DNA of 64,000 bases from Elusimicrobiota bacterium. GTDB taxonomy: Bacteria; Elusimicrobiota; Elusimicrobia; Elusimicrobiales; UBA9959. Below the pieces are notes generated by a model. It ran no database searches, was not told the origin of the DNA, and saw nothing but the letters and a program-made list of their open reading frames with translations. The stretch spans positions 40,404 to 104,403 of the forward strand of contig JACQYT010000092.1 of assembly GCA_016208085.1 (NCBI GenBank). Reading direction: 5' to 3'. A program made the position numbers and the translations under genes. This document shows positions 3,290-38,884 of the stretch, piece by piece. Numbering within the stretch: position 1 is the first letter of the stretch; each line of letters begins with the position of its first letter.

Positions 3290-3368
3290 CCGAAAATCAA
3301 CGCGACATGACGCTGTCGGGGTGGTATGGTAGGATATTTATGTGGACTTGCGCCTGCGGCCGAAAACG

Positions 3369-6098
3369 ATGGTAAAAAAACATTGTGCGCACGCGAAAAA
3401 CAAACCGGACGGCATCCCCGCGCCTCAGAAAGCGTTGCAGCCGTTGGATGAGCATTTGCATAATATTTGGGCAAAGATTTCTAAAGACAGCTCTGCTTCC
3501 TGGCATCCGCTCATACTTCATATGCTGGACGTGGCGGCTGTTGCCGAAGCCGTTTCAATGCGGGAGCCTTCCGTTACTAGGGAAAATATTGCCGCGGCTT
3601 TTGGTATGAAATGGGCGGATGCCCGCCCATGGATATTATTGGCTGTTTCATGCCATGATCTTGGCAAAGCTTGCCCCGGCTTTCAGGCGAAATGGCCCGG
3701 TGCAATAAACAACGGCCTTGCCATGCCGCGTGTGCCGGATACCAGGATAAACCATGGTTTTGTCAGCCAGATAGCGCTTTCTGAATGGCTGCAACGGGAG
3801 AAAAACTGGCCGGCCGGTTTGGCTGATCTGCTTGGAGACGCTGTCGGTTGCCACCACGGGGAAAGAGCAAAGCCTTCCGCCTTGGCACTGTTGTCCGGAA
3901 ACAGGCACGCACTCGGAGGTAGTGATTGGACTCAGGCCCGAAATGCGCTTATTTCAGCGGCGCTTGATACCTTTAAACCGGACAATGCCGTGCCCTTGGT
4001 AACTAAACAAACCCTTTCCGGTCCTGAATTCATGCTGCTTGCCGGTCTTACCAGTTTTTCAGACTGGATAGGGTCGGATGAAAACCGTTTCCGTTTCGGG
4101 ACAATTGAGGACTGTTCCGACCTTCCGGCATGGTTCGCAAAGCGAAAGGTGATAGCTGAAAAAGCCCTGGATGAAATTGGCTGGCTGCCCCGCACGCCGC
4201 TTTCAACTGTGGCAAAAACTTTTGAACAGGCGCTGAATTTCGAGCCGCGTCCTTTGCAAAAAGCTGCCGCCAGGGCGGCAGGCAAACTGAAAGCTCCCGC
4301 TATCATCCTTATTGAAGCGCCGATGGGGGAGGGGAAAACCGAGGCGGGGTTTTATGCCTATTTAGAGTTGCAGCGCCGTTTCGGACACCGCGGGCTGTAC
4401 GTTGCCATGCCGACAAAAGCCACCGGGAACGCCATGTTCGCGCGGGCGCTGGAATTCCTGCGGCGACAGGCTCCGGGGCGCAGCCTTGACCTGCAATTAC
4501 TGCACGGCTCCGCGGCGCAGAATGAAACTTTCCGGAAACTTTGCTTTACGGCTATCGGTGAGCCGGGGGCCGAGGGGGAGGTTCGGGCGGCGGAATGGTT
4601 TACCTCCAGGAAAAAGGCGCTCCTCTCCGAATACGGCATCGGCACCGTGGACCAGGCGTTGATGCCGATTCTTCCGGTGCGCCACAACTTTATGCGTTTG
4701 TGGGGGCTTGCGAACCGTGTGGTTATTTTTGATGAAATCCACGCCTACGACGCATACACAGGAACGCTTCTTGTCCACTTGTTAAGATGGCTTATGGCAA
4801 TGGGTTCGTCAGCGGTGCTTCTTTCCGCCACGCTGCCGTCGTCCATACGGCGCAAGCTGGCCGAGGTCGTCGGGGCTGTCCCACCTAATAAGGAAGCGGA
4901 TTATCCGCGTCTGTCGCTTTTTTCCAAAGGAAAAGTATCGCAGACGCATTTTAAGGCTTCTTCTTCGCTTAGGCGGGCCGTCGCCGTTAATGAAATACCG
5001 GAGGCCCTCGGCAGTTTATATTCGGCTTTAACCGGTTGTTTGGAGAAAGGCGGGCTGGGGCTGGCGCTGTTAAATACAGTGCAGAGAGCCCAGGATTTAT
5101 ATCGCCGTTTCCCTCCCGGAACTCCCATCGAGCGCGATTCCATGCGCGTCGGAAAAAAGCTGCCCGATGGGACAGAGATTTATTTATTCCACGCACGGTT
5201 CCCGTCGAATTGTCGGCAAAAACGCGAGGAGCAGGCGCTCGAATTGTTCGGCAAGGCCGGCGCGCGGCAAGGGCGAAAAATCCTTATCGCCACTCAGGTG
5301 GCGGAACAAAGCCTGGACCTGGATTTTGACCTGATGATTACCGACCTCGCACCTATAGACCTTATTTTACAGAGAGCCGGGCGTTTGTGGCGGCGCCGGC
5401 GCGCCGCCAGGCCGCTGCCCGATCCGGCGCTGTTTGTGGCGGGGCTTGCCGGCAAAGAGCCGCCATCGTTTAAAAAACCATTGTGGTGGGGTAAGGTATA
5501 CAGGGAAGATATTTTATTGCGCACCTGGCTGTTGCTGAAAGGGCGGAAAACTTTTAATCTGCCGGACGACATAGACGCCTTTGTGCGTTCCGTTTATGAA
5601 GGGGAAGCGGACATCCCTGAATTCCTGCGGGAACGCATGGAAAACGCCGAGGCGCAGTACGGGAAGGTTCTGGCCGAGCAGCAACAGGCCAATCAGGCTA
5701 TTATCGGTTTGCCGGATGACGCCTCTTGGAACCAGCCGGAAAGATTTGTGCTTTACGATGAAGATGAACCCGGTGTGCATAGGACGCTGATGGCCAATAC
5801 GCGTCTGGGCAATAATTCAGTTCCAGCCATTCCGCTGTTCACGGATGATGGGTATGATCCCGGTGAACTGCCCGCTGCTAAAGAAACAGAATGGTTTGCG
5901 CGAACTGTGAGTTTATCGCGCAAAGGAATTGTTGCTAAGCTGCAAAACGCCGGCGTGCCGGAAAGCTGGAAGAAGTCACCGCTTTTGCGTAATTGCTTTC
6001 CGTTGATCCTGGATGCGGGCGGGAACTGGATTCTGGATAATTCCGTGAGTCTGGACGAAGACCTCGGCGTGGTTTATGGAACAAAGGAGACGGCATGA
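3369..6098 (+). CDS. cas3: CRISPR-associated helicase/nuclease Cas3 (type I-E)
   Basis: HD motif SCHDLGKACPGFQAKW, GCHHGE, Walker A APMGEGKTEA, DEIHAYD, LLSATLP, QRAGRLWRRRR; alternative GTG start at 3342. Confidence 0.95.
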   Translation: MVKKHCAHAKNKPDGIPAPQKALQPLDEHLHNIWAKISKDSSASWHPLILHMLDVAAVAEAVSMREPSVTRENIAAAFGMKWADARPWILLAVSCHDLGKACPGFQAKWPGAINNGLAMPRVPDTRINHGFVSQIALSEWLQREKNWPAGLADLLGDAVGCHHGERAKPSALALLSGNRHALGGSDWTQARNALISAALDTFKPDNAVPLVTKQTLSGPEFMLLAGLTSFSDWIGSDENRFRFGTIEDCSDLPAWFAKRKVIAEKALDEIGWLPRTPLSTVAKTFEQALNFEPRPLQKAAARAAGKLKAPAIILIEAPMGEGKTEAGFYAYLELQRRFGHRGLYVAMPTKATGNAMFARALEFLRRQAPGRSLDLQLLHGSAAQNETFRKLCFTAIGEPGAEGEVRAAEWFTSRKKALLSEYGIGTVDQALMPILPVRHNFMRLWGLANRVVIFDEIHAYDAYTGTLLVHLLRWLMAMGSSAVLLSATLPSSIRRKLAEVVGAVPPNKEADYPRLSLFSKGKVSQTHFKASSSLRRAVAVNEIPEALGSLYSALTGCLEKGGLGLALLNTVQRAQDLYRRFPPGTPIERDSMRVGKKLPDGTEIYLFHARFPSNCRQKREEQALELFGKAGARQGRKILIATQVAEQSLDLDFDLMITDLAPIDLILQRAGRLWRRRRAARPLPDPALFVAGLAGKEPPSFKKPLWWGKVYREDILLRTWLLLKGRKTFNLPDDIDAFVRSVYEGEADIPEFLRERMENAEAQYGKVLAEQQQANQAIIGLPDDASWNQPERFVLYDEDEPGVHRTLMANTRLGNNSVPAIPLFTDDGYDPGELPAAKETEWFARTVSLSRKGIVAKLQNAGVPESWKKSPLLRNCFPLILDAGGNWILDNSVSLDEDLGVVYGTKETA

Positions 6099-7696
6099 GC
6101 AAGTTTAACCTTATTGACGAAAAGTGGATCCCGGTGAGATTCCTGGACGGAACCAGGGATGAGTTGGGGATCAGCAATACGTTGTCGCGCGCCAAAGAAA
6201 TCGCCGCGATCGAAGATAATTCTCCGCTGGTGGTCGCGTCATTGCACCGCTTCCTGCTGGCCGTGCTCTACCGCGCCCTGCAGGGCCCTGCGGATATCGA
6301 GCAGGCTAAGTACCTGTTCAAGTCCGGCCTGCCGGACAAACCTATAAAAGACTATCTTGAAAAATGGCGTCCCAGGTTCTGGCTGTTTGATGAAAAGTAT
6401 CCTTTTTATCAGATCCCCTCATTTAAACCAAAAAAGTGGAGGGAGTGGACGGCTCTTGCGGTGGAATATAATGCTGATACCGCAAAAGTCCTTTTTGATC
6501 ACACACATGAAAGTGCTTCGGGTAGTATTAGCATGGCAGCGGCCAGTCGGTGGTTGCTTGCTAGTCAGGTTTTTGCCGTCTCGACCGGGAAAAGTGAAAT
6601 CTCTCATACTGGTACATCCCCATCTGCTAACTCAATAATGGCGATCCCTATTGGGTCAAATCTGCAAGATACCCTTATTTTTTGCTTGGTTCCACAGAAC
6701 CGGATAATTATGACAACTGATATCCCTGTATGGGAGCGTAAACCAGACACCATGGATTACCTTAAAACTAAAGTCAGAGTCACCAATAAGGAAAAGGGAG
6801 CTTCTTCAAAATATAGAACAGTAGAAAGAACGGCAACAGGAATAGTAGACCTTTATACATGGAGAACTCGTTCTGTTATTTTGAAAGAGCTGAACTCTGG
6901 GAATATTGAAAAACTTGGATTTGCATCTGGCATCGGCTATAAAGAATCCATTATGCCAGATCCAATGTTGGCATATACGATTAGAGAGGTGACGGATAAA
7001 GAATCAAGCACAAAACTAAAAAAAAGATTTTCCCTGAAATTTGAAGAAGAAGGGGCCTGGAAGGATTTTGATTCGCTTTTGCCGGATAGTGCGCAACTTG
7101 CCCCTCAAGTTATAGACAATGCTATAACACTAGCAAAGCAAGATGTAGAACGATTCCCCAGAGGGGTAATGGTGCTTGGGCAGCGGTATTTTCCGCCGAG
7201 ACCAAATATCGCTTTCTGGAGAAAAGAATACTTTGTGTTGCCAAGGGCAATACTCAGTAGAAATGATATGCGGTTTGAAATTCACGCTATTCTTGTTGAG
7301 GCCAAAAATGTAGCTGATAAATTATCTGATGTGTGTAAAATTTTTGCGAAAGGAATGCTTGGACATGGTGGGAGAAAAATAGAGGCTCTTGATGTCGAGA
7401 ACTTTGCTGCTCAATTGCCCGCTCTCCCTGGTTACTGGTCCGTTCTGGAAGCCAGGTTCCATGAGATCCTTGGTGAGTACTCGGCCAACCGCGATGCCGA
7501 TGATATTCGCTGCCAGTGGCTGGGGTATGTCCGGGACGCGCTTAAAAACGCCTGGGAACAGTTCTCCGCCTCGGTGGACGGCGGCGACGCCTGGGCGATA
7601 CGCGCGCTTGTGAAAGCGGAAGTTCCGGTACTGACTAAAATAAACGAACTGAACGAGGAAATCGCAAAATACGCAAAACAGGAGGTAAATCAATGA
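6095..7696 (+). CDS. casA: Cascade large subunit Cas8e (CasA/Cse1)
   Basis: N-terminal FNLIDEKWIPV; position between cas3 and cse2; 4-bp overlap with cas3. Confidence 0.93.
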   Translation: MSKFNLIDEKWIPVRFLDGTRDELGISNTLSRAKEIAAIEDNSPLVVASLHRFLLAVLYRALQGPADIEQAKYLFKSGLPDKPIKDYLEKWRPRFWLFDEKYPFYQIPSFKPKKWREWTALAVEYNADTAKVLFDHTHESASGSISMAAASRWLLASQVFAVSTGKSEISHTGTSPSANSIMAIPIGSNLQDTLIFCLVPQNRIIMTTDIPVWERKPDTMDYLKTKVRVTNKEKGASSKYRTVERTATGIVDLYTWRTRSVILKELNSGNIEKLGFASGIGYKESIMPDPMLAYTIREVTDKESSTKLKKRFSLKFEEEGAWKDFDSLLPDSAQLAPQVIDNAITLAKQDVERFPRGVMVLGQRYFPPRPNIAFWRKEYFVLPRAILSRNDMRFEIHAILVEAKNVADKLSDVCKIFAKGMLGHGGRKIEALDVENFAAQLPALPGYWSVLEARFHEILGEYSANRDADDIRCQWLGYVRDALKNAWEQFSASVDGGDAWAIRALVKAEVPVLTKINELNEEIAKYAKQEVNQ

Positions 7697-8190
7697 GCGG
7701 GTTTATGGCATGGCTGGAAAAAATCAATGCCGACGGCAGGAAGGCCAGGGCCGTATTGCGCCGCAGCCTGGCTTTTGAGCCCGGCGCATATGTTCCGGCA
7801 TATCCGTACGTGGAGCCGTTTTTGACCGGCGAGGAAAATCAGTGGAAACGGGAAATGCACTATCTTGTTGCGGGGCTCTGGGCTGCGCATTGGAGGGAAG
7901 AGCGCGCCGGCCCCCCGGTATCTATAGGCAAGGCTTGTGCGCTTTTGTATAAGGAGCAAAAGCGCCGCGCAAAAGATAATAAGGATGCCGTGTCTGGCCC
8001 GGAACGGCGGTTTATAACCATGCTGAATTCCGATACGGACCAGTTGCCGTACCGCCTGCGCCAACTGCTGGCCCTTCTGAAAGATCAGCCGGTTGACTGT
8101 GAAAATCTGCTGGCCGGGCTGCTGCGCTGGAATGATGACCGGAAACCCACCCAGAATTCCTGGGCCCGGGACTTCTACAGAGGTATATAA
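7693..8190 (+). CDS. casB: Cascade small subunit Cse2 (CasB)
   Basis: Position in operon, size, Cse2-like sequence (RRFITMLNSDTDQLPYRLRQLLALL). Confidence 0.88.
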   Translation: MSGFMAWLEKINADGRKARAVLRRSLAFEPGAYVPAYPYVEPFLTGEENQWKREMHYLVAGLWAAHWREERAGPPVSIGKACALLYKEQKRRAKDNKDAVSGPERRFITMLNSDTDQLPYRLRQLLALLKDQPVDCENLLAGLLRWNDDRKPTQNSWARDFYRGI

Positions 8191-8226: not shown

Positions 8227-9372
8227 ATGAAAACCTTAATAGAAATACATGTCTTGCAGAACTTCGCCCCCTCAAACCTGAACAGGGACGATTCGGGAGC
8301 GCCGAAAGACGCTTTTTTCGGCGGCACCCGCCGCGCCCGCATCTCCAGCCAGTGCCTTAAGCGCGCGGTCAGGGGATATTTCGGCCAGAAAAAAACCGAC
8401 GGGTTCTTTTCTCCCGAGGAACTTGCAGTCAGGACAAAACGGGTCTATCAGGCCATCGCGGACTCGCTCAAGGGAAAGCGGGATGGCGCGGCAGCCGCCG
8501 CCAAGGCGGGAATCGCTTTGTCGTATGTTAAATTAAATGCCGCTGACGCCGGCAAAACTGAATATCTCCTTTTCCTTGGGCAGCGGGAAATAAAGGGATT
8601 GGCGGAAATAATCAATGAATTCTGGGAACAGATCGTTCCCGCAAAAGAAGAAACCACTGATGCCGGGAAAAAGAAAGACGCGGCAGGCGGGGCGCCCAAG
8701 GAAGTGCAGGAGCGGATAAAGGCAGTTTTCAATGGAGGAAAGGCCGTTGATGTCGCCCTCTTCGGCCGCATGCTTGCGGATATGCCAGAGAAGAACCAGA
8801 ATGCCGCGTGCCAGGTGGCGCATGCCATCTCAACCCATGCCGTTGAAAGGGAATTCGACTTTTATACCGCGGTAGACGACCTAAAGCCGGAAGACAACGC
8901 CGGTGCGGATATGATGGGGACCGTGGAGTTCAACTCCGCCTGTTTCTACCGCTACGCCGTTGTTGACTTGGCAACACTGTTAGAGAACCTGCAGGACGAC
9001 AGGGAACTGTCCGGAAAGGGACTGCGCGCTTTCCTTGAAGGGTTTGTCATCGCAGAGCCTACCGGCAAGCAGAACAGTTTCGCCGCGCATAATCCGCCGG
9101 AATTCGTCGCCATATCGGTGCGGCGCAATACCGCGCCTCGCAGCCTGGCCAACGCCTTTGAAAAATCTGTCTATATCCGCAAAGGCGATTCTGTTACTGC
9201 AAAATCGGCCGAAGAGCTTGTTAAAAAAGCCAAGGCTCTGCGGGATGTGTTCGGCGGCCAGGAGGAGACATTCCTTCTTAACCTTACCGAAGCCAAATCG
9301 GATGGGATGGGGATAAAAGTCAACTCTTTGCCTGAACTTCTTGATAAAGTCTGCGCTGCTGTTAAGGAGTGA
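8227..9372 (+). CDS. casC: Cascade backbone Cas7e (CasC/Cse4)
   Basis: IEIHVLQNFAPSNLNRDDSGAPKDAFFGGTRRARISSQCLKRAVR is diagnostic of Cas7e. Confidence 0.96.
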   Translation: MKTLIEIHVLQNFAPSNLNRDDSGAPKDAFFGGTRRARISSQCLKRAVRGYFGQKKTDGFFSPEELAVRTKRVYQAIADSLKGKRDGAAAAAKAGIALSYVKLNAADAGKTEYLLFLGQREIKGLAEIINEFWEQIVPAKEETTDAGKKKDAAGGAPKEVQERIKAVFNGGKAVDVALFGRMLADMPEKNQNAACQVAHAISTHAVEREFDFYTAVDDLKPEDNAGADMMGTVEFNSACFYRYAVVDLATLLENLQDDRELSGKGLRAFLEGFVIAEPTGKQNSFAAHNPPEFVAISVRRNTAPRSLANAFEKSVYIRKGDSVTAKSAEELVKKAKALRDVFGGQEETFLLNLTEAKSDGMGIKVNSLPELLDKVCAAVKE

Positions 9373-9375
9373 GAT

Positions 9376-10074
9376 ATGTCCACATTATTGCTCCGGCTGG
9401 CCGGCCCCATGCAGTCATGGGGTACCACCAGCCGGTTTGATCAGCGTGATACGGGAAAGGAGCCAAGCAAATCCGGAGTTATCGGACTTCTGGCTGCTGC
9501 TATGGGGATTGATCAGGAAAACTGGACGGACCTAAAGCCTTTGACGAATCTCGCTATGGGTGTACGACACGACCGGCCCGGCTTCCCGAAGTACGATTAC
9601 CAGACGGCAGGATGCGCAATGGCGGATTCCATTATCAAGGCGAACGGCGAGCTTTCCACGGCCGGCGGAGTGGTCTCGCGCCGTTTTTATCTCGCCGACG
9701 CCGTTTTCCTGGCGGGTTTGGAAAGCCAGGATGAATCCCTGCTTGTTCGCGCGGATGCCGCACTGCGAAATCCGAAATGGCAGCTTTCACTCGGACGCAA
9801 ATCCTATGTGCCTTCTGAGCCGGTCTGGCTCGAGAACGGAATACAGGACGCGCCGCTGCTGGAAGTTTTATCAAAATGGCCGTGGCTTGCCGTGGAGCGG
9901 AAATGGGAGAAACGCCCGGAAAAATTGCTGGTTTCATTTGAATCCAATGACGGTTCGGGAACGCTTAAAATGGACCAGCCGCTGGCGTCTTTCGCCGCGA
10001 GGCGCTTCGGCGCCAGATTCGTGCGTTCGGAATGGATAAAGTTCCCGCGGGAGGTGCTGAATGTTCCTGCATAA
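9376..10074 (+). CDS. casD: Cas5e (CasD)
   Basis: LLLRLAGPMQSWGTTSRFDQRDTGKEPSKSGVIGLLAAAMG. Confidence 0.95.
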   Translation: MSTLLLRLAGPMQSWGTTSRFDQRDTGKEPSKSGVIGLLAAAMGIDQENWTDLKPLTNLAMGVRHDRPGFPKYDYQTAGCAMADSIIKANGELSTAGGVVSRRFYLADAVFLAGLESQDESLLVRADAALRNPKWQLSLGRKSYVPSEPVWLENGIQDAPLLEVLSKWPWLAVERKWEKRPEKLLVSFESNDGSGTLKMDQPLASFAARRFGARFVRSEWIKFPREVLNVPA

Positions 10075-10753
10075 AATACATCTTAACCCGAAAAGCAGGG
10101 AAGTGCGGCGGGACCTCGCCGATCCCTATGAATTGCATTCCACGCTTTGCCGGGCTTTTTCCCCTTCGGACACAAAGTGTCCCGAAGGAGAATTTCTCTG
10201 GCGGCTTGAACCGGAAACAGATAAAGAGGGGAATCCGCGTGTAATAATACAAAGCCGTTCCTTTCCCGACTGGTCACGGATAAATATTAGAGATTGGCTG
10301 GTTAAGCCGCCATCCGGATCTGATGTGATCAATCTGCTTGAAAGCAGGCGGCTGAATCTTAAATCATTACAGCCTGGCGCAAAATTCCGTTTTCGCCTGA
10401 GGGCCAATCCCTCCGTGAAACGCGACGGCAAACGGCTGGGCTTGCTTAATACCCCCGGGCAGGAGTTATGGCTGGACCGTAAAGGGCGGGAGCAGCATGG
10501 ATTTACACTGCCGTACTTGGCCGGCCCTGAAACAAAGGAGGGGCAAATCCCGCGTGTTGCGGTCAGGATTTTCCAGGAGCAGATGTTGCGCGGACACAGA
10601 AGAAACAGGGCGGAAATCCGTGTTTTTTCGGCGTTGTACGATGGGGTGCTGACTGTCGCCGAACCGGGAAAATTCCTGGAGACTCTGCAGAAAGGTATCG
10701 GGCATGGGAAAACCATGGGTCTTGGCCTGCTTTCAATTGCGCCGGTTTCATAA
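10061..10753 (+). CDS. casE: Cas6e crRNA endoribonuclease (CasE/Cse3)
   Basis: DPYELHSTLCRAF, C-terminal GIGHGKTMGLGLLSIAP. Confidence 0.94.
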   Translation: MFLHKIHLNPKSREVRRDLADPYELHSTLCRAFSPSDTKCPEGEFLWRLEPETDKEGNPRVIIQSRSFPDWSRINIRDWLVKPPSGSDVINLLESRRLNLKSLQPGAKFRFRLRANPSVKRDGKRLGLLNTPGQELWLDRKGREQHGFTLPYLAGPETKEGQIPRVAVRIFQEQMLRGHRRNRAEIRVFSALYDGVLTVAEPGKFLETLQKGIGHGKTMGLGLLSIAPVS

Positions 10754-10776: not shown

Positions 10777-11602
10777 ATGGACAATAAAATGGTCGTTTTC
10801 AGGGGCAAGGGAATAAGACGGACCTTGTATAAAAATGAGTGGTGGTTTGTTATTTCCGATGTTATAGCCGCGCTTACGGATTCTCTGGACCCGGCCGGAT
10901 ATATTAAGGATATGCGCCGCAGGGATGACGAGCTTTCCAAAGGGTGGGGGCAAATTGCCGCCCCCCTTGTAATCCAGACTGAAGGCGGGCCTCAAAAGAT
11001 CAATTGCGCCAATACGGAAGGGATATTCCGTATCATACAATCCATCCCTTCCCCCAAGGCCGAACCTTTTAAACGCTGGCTGGCTAAAGTCGGTTATGAG
11101 CGGGTGCAGGAGATAGAGGATCCCGAACTTGGCACAAAAAGAGCCCGCGTCCTGTTCAGGGCAAAAGGCTATTCCGATGAGTGGATTGAAAAGCGAATGC
11201 GCGGCATCGCCATCCGCGAAGAATTGACCGACGAGTGGAAAAAACGGGATGTTGAACAGCCCAAAGAGTATGAAATCCTGACCGCGGAAATAGCAAAGGC
11301 CGCGTTCGGAGTGACCCCGTCCGCTCACAAGAAAATCAAGGGGCTGGACCGCGAAAATCTGCGCGATCATATGACGGATATGGAACTGATCTTTACCATG
11401 TTGGGCGAGGCATCCACAACCGCGATCGCCAGGGCCGACGACGTGCGCGGCTTTCCGGAAAACCGCCGCGCCGCCGTCAAAGGCGGAGGCGTCGCGGGGA
11501 AGGCCAGGAAAGACCTGGAAAAAAAGACGGGGAAACGCGTTGTCTCCGCTGAAAATTACCTGACGGAGCCGGAAAGCCGCAAAAGGCTGGAACAAAAAAA
11601 TC

Positions 11603-11610
<8 letters not shown>
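10777..11610 (+). CDS. BRO-N domain protein, DinD-like (phage antirepressor family)
   Basis: N-term FRGKGIRRTLYKNEWWFVISDVIAALTDSLDPAGYIKDMRRRD; C-term KKIKGLDRENLRDHMTDMELIFTMLGEASTTAIAR...KGGGVAGKARKDLEKKTGKRVVSAENYL typical of Bro-N/DinD proteins; overlaps cas1 start by 8 bp. Confidence 0.88.
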
Positions 11611-12800
<1,190 letters not shown>

Positions 12801-12893: not shown

Positions 12894-12983
12894 ATGTTCC
12901 CCACGCGCGTGGGGATGAACCGAAAGGTGTTTACCCCCCCCACTATACAGGAAAATGTTCCCCACGCGCGTGGGGCTGAACCG
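12894..12983 (+). CRISPR. Minimal type I-E CRISPR array: two 29-bp repeats (12894-12922, 12955-12983), one 32-bp spacer (12923-12954)
   Basis: ATGTTCCCCACGCGCGTGGGGATGAACCG and a copy with one substitution (GGGGCTGAACCG), exactly 61 bp apart, directly downstream of cas2. Confidence 0.93.
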
Positions 12984-38440: not shown

Positions 38441-38884
38441 CCTAATGAGCGCGAAGCCCCGCCCGGCCGGACCCGCGCCGGCGGCGGCTCCTGGAGCAAA
38501 GGGCAGCAGCTACCTTTTAGGCACGGCGGCGACACCGACTGGGCTACCTTGCGGTCCTAAGCCCAAAGTCTGTCAGCCCGGCGTTATTATCACACATCGG
38601 GCTGCCGCCGCGGACGCCTTCGCCGCGGGTGGCGGCGAGTTGAGCGTCTTAGTAACCACAGTGATAAAGCCGGTTCAGTCGTCCTTCGGATCCCACCAGT
38701 CTATAACAATATCCAGCGACAGCATCATGTCGGAACATAAAAGACGGTTTTGCTTTTTGATACCGAACTTGAGTATCCCTCATGTACTGCCCTCCTTGCC
38801 GATGATGTCATGTTTAAACCTCCCAAACATGCCCTTTTTGCAGGTGTCCGTTCGGTAACATTTTAGATGACTTGATTCGAGCCC

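What the first reader, a model, noticed from the sequence alone, without database searches (positions are those of the whole stretch)
10777..11610. Bro-N/DinD-like antirepressor gene embedded and translationally coupled in a type I-E cas operon
Seen: an intact 277-codon Bro-N ORF lies between cas6e (ends 10753) and cas1 (starts 11603) on the same strand, with its own RBS (ggtaggagccgtt). Its TGA overlaps the cas1 ATG (aatcATGACTGA), so cas1-cas2 translation is probably coupled to it. Established: the canonical I-E order is cas3-cas8e-cse2-cas7-cas5-cas6-cas1-cas2 with nothing between cas6e and cas1; Bro-N proteins are phage/prophage antirepressor-type DNA-binding proteins and DinD is SOS-induced. 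Inference: it could regulate the adaptation module or link it to phage or DNA-damage signals. It could equally be a captured phage gene. This is the best candidate here for an undescribed system.
Basis: partly seen in the sequence, partly recalled or inferred. Interest (0 to 1): 0.72.

Follow-up and report, generated by a model that had tools for sequence, protein, structure and literature searches.

The report
DNA-damage-type gene inside CRISPR operon
A gene for a DNA-binding protein of the DNA-damage-response type really does sit inside this bacterium's CRISPR immunity operon, directly before the genes that record new viruses; the same kind of gene recurs at equivalent places in type I-E and I-C CRISPR operons of at least six bacterial phyla, and here the whole operon carries the same DNA-damage switch as the repair gene recA.

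Summary
An intact 277-aa Bro-N protein lies between cas6e and cas1 of a complete type I-E operon (Elusimicrobiota) and overlaps cas1 by 8 nt. It is not a one-off insertion. Related genes occupy the same slot in four other genera of the family and in six loci of other phyla (a further locus keeps only a cas1 fragment). Sixteen type I-C operons carry one too, mostly at the cas7/cas4 or cas4/cas1 junction. Linked copies cluster on the tree, but I-E and I-C copies are fully intermixed. Within one Cas1 lineage the slot's allele has been replaced at least once (AU p about 1e-6). The damage link is real at sequence level: the palindrome CGACA-N6-TGTCG precedes recA in 25 of 30 family genomes, and the identical 16-mer precedes cas3 here. 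The predicted fold matches Deinococcus DdrC, a damage-induced DNA-binding protein. The family is not undescribed: PADLOC lists it as phage-defence candidate PDC-S13, together with E. coli DinD, to which BLAST finds no similarity. Best reading: a damage-induced DNA-end-binding accessory expressed with the adaptation module. An independent embedded defence gene is almost as likely. The effect on spacer acquisition is untested. Novelty: new variant of a known kind.

The parts
3303..3318 (.). SOS-like operator CGACATGACGCTGTCG upstream of cas3
   Evidence: Identical 16-mer lies upstream of recA in the same genome; exact motif upstream of recA in 25 of 30 family genomes.
3327..3335 (+). extended -10-like element TGGTAGGAT
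   Evidence: Read directly; the same spacing and a similar element follow the palindrome at other sites.
3342..6098 (+). cas3 (GTG at 3342; an ATG at 3371 is an alternative start); residues about 13-47 resemble a type I-C Cas3 N-terminus
6095..7696 (+). cas8e (cse1/casA)
   Evidence: TIGR02547 2.9e-34.
7693..8190 (+). cse2 (casB)
   Evidence: TIGR02548 4.3e-21.
8227..9372 (+). cas7e
   Evidence: TIGR01869 1.3e-99.
9376..10074 (+). cas5e
   Evidence: TIGR01868 8e-47.
10061..10753 (+). cas6e
   Evidence: TIGR01907 5.8e-22 and PF08798 2.1e-47.
10777..11610 (+). Bro-N / PDC-S13 (DinD-like) embedded gene, 277 aa
   Evidence: PF02498 3.1e-12; phrog_15286 3.8e-81; PADLOC PDC-S13 3.6e-109; DdrC-like predicted fold.
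10882..11016 (+). residues 36-80 of the Bro-N domain: exchangeable, hypervariable segment
   Evidence: 22% identity to L032 over residues 36-80 against 91-92% over 81-277.
11603..12526 (+). cas1e; its start overlaps the end of the Bro-N gene
   Evidence: TIGR03638 2.1e-110; overlap read.
12504..12800 (+). cas2e
   Evidence: TIGR01873 7.3e-33.
12894..12983 (+). CRISPR array: two 29-nt repeats, one 32-nt spacer
   Evidence: no other copy in the genome.

Best explanation
The gene is a CRISPR-associated lineage of the PDC-S13 (DinD-like, Bro-N) family that lives at the boundary between the effector and adaptation modules of type I-E and I-C operons. In this Elusimicrobiota family the operon start carries the SOS operator that also precedes recA. 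DNA damage or phage replication would therefore induce Cascade, Cas3, the Bro-N protein and Cas1-Cas2 together. The protein is predicted to have a DdrC-like fold, and I propose that it binds DNA ends, nicks or single strands made by Cas3, by infection or by host breaks. It would protect or hold them, favouring survival and supplying substrate to Cas1-Cas2. Shown: gene, position, overlap, recurrence, operator match, allele exchange and predicted fold. Inferred: induction by damage, DNA-end binding, and any effect on spacer acquisition.
For: Position: all 12 type I-E cases lie on the cas1 side of the effector genes, 10 of them directly next to cas1 (one of these is only a cas1 fragment). In 11 of 16 type I-C cases the gene lies in the cas7/cas4/cas1 region, and it was never seen inside the effector gene block. 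Junction gaps are mostly -8 to +16 nt. In the family the gene and Cas1 (85-92% identical) stay together while effectors differ greatly: cas7 31-33%, cas3 about 30% in two of five loci. Cas-linked copies cluster on the tree: 13 changes against a shuffled mean of 26.8, and 7 against 16.5 versus copies beside other defence genes; I-E and I-C labels are intermixed, 9 against 9.7. Operator: exact palindrome upstream of recA in 25 of 30 genomes against 2.5% of background windows; identical 16-mer upstream of cas3 here; exact boxes in front of cas3, or of the ORF6N gene ahead of it, in 4 further I-E loci. Fold: only DdrC structures are significant in the PDB, E 1.6e-6; DdrC binds ss/dsDNA, protects it from nucleases and is induced by irradiation (PMC5436757). 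Several I-E loci with the gene carry long arrays, 40-94 repeats in five of the ten checked, so the gene does not disable acquisition.
Against: Of the 121 loci surveyed, 68 have no cas or recognised defence gene near the Bro-N gene, and 27 have other defence-type genes, so the protein does not need CRISPR. In 5 type I-C loci it lies upstream of cas3, away from cas1. RhuM fills the same I-E slot in G176, and ORF6N, Fic and YhcG genes occur beside cas genes too, which suggests a generic slot. No LexA was detected in the window's genome, and only one weak S24 match, so the repressor is unidentified. The DdrC match has moderate TM-scores (0.43/0.52) and 13% identity. The window's own array has one spacer.
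Confidence: 0.42

Rival explanations
1. It is an independent anti-phage or damage-response gene that merely rides in CRISPR and restriction operons, benefiting from their promoters. The module boundary is a tolerant insertion slot that DinD-like, RhuM, ORF6N, Fic and YhcG genes fill interchangeably.
For: PADLOC lists it as single-gene candidate PDC-S13. PDC families were found by guilt-by-embedding (Payne et al. 2024 preprint, as cited in PMC12988326). RhuM and ORF6N match PDC-S05, and PDC-S02 models match two of the neighbour proteins, the same number as the YhcG family. The same family lies next to type III Mod/Res genes and often stands alone with its own SOS-type operator.
Against: Cas-linked copies form clustered parts of the tree rather than being scattered, and the gene stays with Cas1-Cas2 across effector swaps.
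Confidence: 0.38
2. It is a transcriptional regulator (repressor or antirepressor) of the cas operon or leader, as Bro-N phage proteins are of prophage operons.
For: Bro-N domain; viral structure matches include phage proteins annotated as repressor-domain, antirepressor and Bro-N proteins.
Against: The C-terminal two thirds are conserved and match DdrC in fold, a DNA-binding protein reported without sequence specificity. The Bro-N segment most likely to read sequence is hypervariable between alleles in the same slot. The conserved operator is shared with recA, so it belongs to a general damage regulon.
Confidence: 0.1
3. It is a passenger: a mobile stand-alone gene inserted by chance, with no function in the operon.
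For: The family moves widely between phyla and often lies in unrelated contexts.
Against: Recurrence in 28 operons of two subtypes and six phyla, always on the same strand, with overlapping or near-touching junctions, intact frames and repeated allele exchange in one slot.
Confidence: 0.05

Closest known systems
PADLOC phage-defence candidate PDC-S13 (guilt-by-embedding; Payne et al. 2024 preprint, doi 10.1101/2024.01.29.577857, not readable here)
   Same: Full-length profile match 3.6e-109; embedded in a defence operon.
   Different: I found no held paper describing the CRISPR effector/adaptation junction position, the shared recA operator, the subtype mixing or the mosaic alleles; the preprint itself could not be read.
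E. coli DinD
   Same: Bro-N domain plus a helical C-terminus; the K-12 protein also matches the window-type PDC-S13 model (2.2e-16 over residues 122-250).
   Different: No significant BLASTP similarity (E 0.28); K-12 dinD lies outside any cas locus; the reported RecA-filament effect cannot be transferred.
Deinococcus radiodurans DdrC
   Same: Only significant PDB fold match (E 1.6e-6, probability 1.00); damage-induced DNA-binding protein.
   Different: 13% identity; DdrC is controlled by DdrO/IrrE and I know of no CRISPR link for it.
RhuM and ORF6N proteins (PDC-S05)
   Same: RhuM occupies the identical cas6e/cas1 slot in G176; ORF6N precedes cas3 under an SOS-type box in G012, G019 and G020.
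   Different: Different protein families by Pfam.
Canonical type I-E CRISPR-Cas
   Same: All eight cas genes in order, with an I-E-type repeat.
   Different: Extra gene between cas6e and cas1; SOS-type operator; almost empty array.

Membership tests
Type I-E CRISPR-Cas | cas3, cas8e, cse2, cas7, cas5, cas6e, cas1 and cas2 of subtype I-E | tested here: met
Bro-N domain proteins | PF02498 over gathering score | tested here: met
   47.4 bits against a 25.6 cut-off.
PADLOC PDC-S13 | Full-length match to a PDC-S13 model | tested here: met
   3.6e-109, residues 2-273.
PADLOC PDC-S13 | Demonstrated anti-phage activity | not testable with these tools
   PDCs are described as largely unvalidated in PMC12988326.
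DinD (E. coli) | Full-length homology to DinD | tested here: inconclusive
   BLASTP E 0.28; hhalign probability 2%; shared Bro-N and a shared PDC-S13 model.
DinD (E. coli) | SOS-regulated expression | tested here: inconclusive
   recA-type operator in front of the operon; expression was not measured.
DinD (E. coli) | Acts on RecA filaments (Uranga et al. 2011, as cited in PMC4786428) | not testable with these tools
   Needs biochemistry.
DdrC | DdrC fold | tested here: met
   Foldseek E 1.6e-6, probability 1.00, TM 0.43/0.52; model pLDDT 87. This is a fold match, not proof of membership.
DdrC | DNA binding and protection from nucleases | not testable with these tools
   Shown for DdrC in PMC5436757, not for this protein.
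SOS regulon | Operator shared with recA | tested here: met
   Identical 16-mer; 25 of 30 recA upstream regions.
SOS regulon | LexA-type repressor in the genome | tested here: inconclusive
   No TIGR00498 match and one weak S24 match in a 90% complete genome; several relatives have S24 proteins.

The most novel reading that the evidence does not exclude
The cas-linked Bro-N/PDC-S13 lineage is a dedicated accessory factor of type I-E and I-C adaptation: a damage-induced DNA-end-capturing protein that delivers or protects prespacer DNA for Cas1-Cas2 and so couples spacer acquisition to the SOS response.
Probability: 0.25. Interest if true: 0.85.

Novelty: new variant of a known kind. Interest (0 to 1): 0.6.

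Why it matters
How cells decide when to record new spacers is open. A cas operon with a recA-type damage operator and a DdrC-fold protein next to cas1 makes 'damage-induced adaptation' directly testable. It would also give a function to a widespread embedded candidate family (PDC-S13) for which I found only a name.

Tried and rejected
Recent random insertion: rejected, since there is no second copy in the genome and the gene recurs at the slot. Captured phage gene: best phage record 43% identity, against up to 88% in bacteria. Transfer of the E. coli DinD function: rejected for lack of BLAST similarity. The 'cas3 N-terminal' fragment next to Bro-N genes in G028 and G001 first looked like part of the module; G149 shows it to be a remnant of a type I-C operon led by the Bro-N gene. 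One origin for the five I-E copies of the family: rejected by AU tests, also on parts outside the variable segment. The first AU run on the 121-row tree did not finish. PDB sequence search gave nothing useful. Of 40 plasmid records with cas1e, none is among the 19 plasmid records with this Bro-N family, so the link is not universal. Literature searches for DinD or Bro-N with CRISPR, and for an SOS box before cas3, found no prior description in the held papers; the embedding preprint is not held.

Full report
What is there. The ORF at 10777-11610 is an intact 277-aa Bro-N protein between cas6e and cas1 of a complete type I-E operon. Its stop codon overlaps the cas1 start. The CRISPR array behind cas2 has two repeats and one spacer, and no other copy of the repeat was found in the genome. 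The genome holds no second copy of the gene. Relatives are named Elusimicrobia (the contig length of L121 equals that of G008:C30).

The position is conserved in the family. In a search of the window's genome and 60 relatives, 18 of the 61 have a match. In four other genera of the family (G004, G020, G005, G019) the homologue sits directly before cas1e-cas2e, as here. Cas1 is 85-92% identical among the five, but the effector genes of G004 and G005 share only about 30% with the window. In a Cas1-centred survey of 342 genomes of the phylum, seven have a close cas1e: five carry the Bro-N gene in the slot, one (G176) carries a RhuM gene there, and one (G281) has nothing between cas6e and cas1. An eighth locus (G012) is broken by an insertion-sequence-like stretch and keeps an ORF6N gene ahead of cas3. 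Three more genomes have only distant cas1 genes (32-37%).

Together with the Elusimicrobiota loci, 121 loci plus the window were mapped. Twelve type I-E loci, window included, have the gene between the effector genes and cas1; in L194 a RhuM gene and in L175 another short ORF stand between it and cas1, and in L164 only a cas1 fragment remains. Sixteen type I-C loci have it: cas7/cas4 or cas4/cas1 junction or nearby in 11, upstream of cas3 in five. Two more (G028, G001) keep a remnant of a type I-C cas3. L119 was counted as cas by the script only because of a Cas4-like protein and is excluded here. Record titles give six phyla: Elusimicrobiota, Thermodesulfobacteriota, Myxococcota, Bacteroidota, Nitrospirota and Ignavibacteriota. 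I-E loci with the gene carry arrays of up to 94 repeats.

Tree. On a quick tree of 121 rows (moderate support, many weak forks) cas-linked copies are clustered: 13 changes against a shuffled mean of 26.8, minimum 21. I-E and I-C labels are mixed as if shuffled, 9 against 9.7. The five family I-E copies are not one clade (AU p 4.75e-6), also for residues 81-200 and 201-270 alone, although their Cas1 proteins are close kin. Alleles are mosaic: against L032 the window has 22% identity over residues 36-80 but 91-92% after that; against L034 it has 91% there and 49% over 201-277. Recombination therefore adds to, or replaces, whole-gene exchange. The sampling favours relatives of the window protein, and MAG mis-binning is possible.

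Damage operator. The palindrome CGACA-N6-TGTCG occurs 14 times in the genome against 3 for the reversed control. One copy lies just upstream of recA; the identical 16-mer lies at 3303-3318 before cas3. It occurs exactly within 400 bp upstream of recA in 25 of 30 family genomes, against 2.5% of background windows. Other sites precede genes that I read as an ERCC4-type nuclease with RecQ, DNA methyltransferases and an HsdM-like gene (assigned by reading the translations, not by a family search). The motif also precedes many stand-alone Bro-N genes, 10 of 43 loci exactly, and the I-E operons of G005, G019, G020 and G012, in the last two ahead of an ORF6N gene; in G004 it is degraded. I infer that it is the SOS box of this family. 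The repressor is unidentified: no LexA, and one weak S24 match, in the window's genome.

What the protein is. It matches PADLOC PDC-S13 over its full length. PDCs come from a guilt-by-embedding study cited in PMC12988326 and PMC12255303; the preprint is not held. E. coli DinD matches PDC-S13 models too and shares Bro-N, but BLASTP and hhalign find no significant full-length similarity. The AlphaFold model (pLDDT 87, pTM 0.66) matches only DdrC significantly among solved structures and Bro-N or antirepressor proteins among viral ones. DdrC binds and protects DNA, anneals strands and is damage-induced (PMC5436757).

Other company. Recurrent non-cas neighbours are type III Mod methylases, RhuM, YhcG nucleases and Fic proteins; 68 of 121 loci have neither cas nor these. 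This keeps the independent-defence reading almost level with the adaptation reading. Functional linkage to CRISPR rests on recurrence, junction position, tree clustering and the shared operator; no functional step is shown.

Noticed in passing
window 3342-3480: The cas3 N-terminal extension (residues about 13-47) resembles the N-terminus of type I-C Cas3; similar fragments lie next to Bro-N genes or SOS-type boxes in G028, G001 and G005, suggesting I-C/I-E exchange at the operon start.
   Followed up: partly
L092:1533-2507: A RhuM gene (PF13310, 1.4e-92) sits between cas6e and cas1 of a type I-E locus in another Elusimicrobiota family (G176).
   Followed up: partly
L094:7048-7638; L029, L034, L038: An ORF6N protein gene precedes cas3; in G012, G019 and G020 it has an SOS-type box directly upstream.
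   Followed up: partly
L194:3351-6367: Desulfocapsa I-E locus with both the Bro-N gene and a RhuM gene in a row between effector genes and cas1-cas2.
   Followed up: partly
L046 (G044:C3) and G041:C19: In the sister family f2 an S24 peptidase gene lies directly beside the Bro-N gene, a possible LexA- or UmuD-like partner.
   Followed up: no
window 10882-11016 (residues 36-80): The Bro-N segment is exchangeable and hypervariable between alleles while the rest can stay above 90% identical.
   Followed up: partly
window 38717-38732: A second exact CGACA-N6-TGTCG palindrome in the window; its downstream gene was not identified.
   Followed up: no
PADLOC model PDLC03083 against L241:5761-6585: The model named type I specificity subunit matches E. 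coli DinD at 3e-114 over its first 267 positions, suggesting DinD-HsdS fusions in that model.
   Followed up: no
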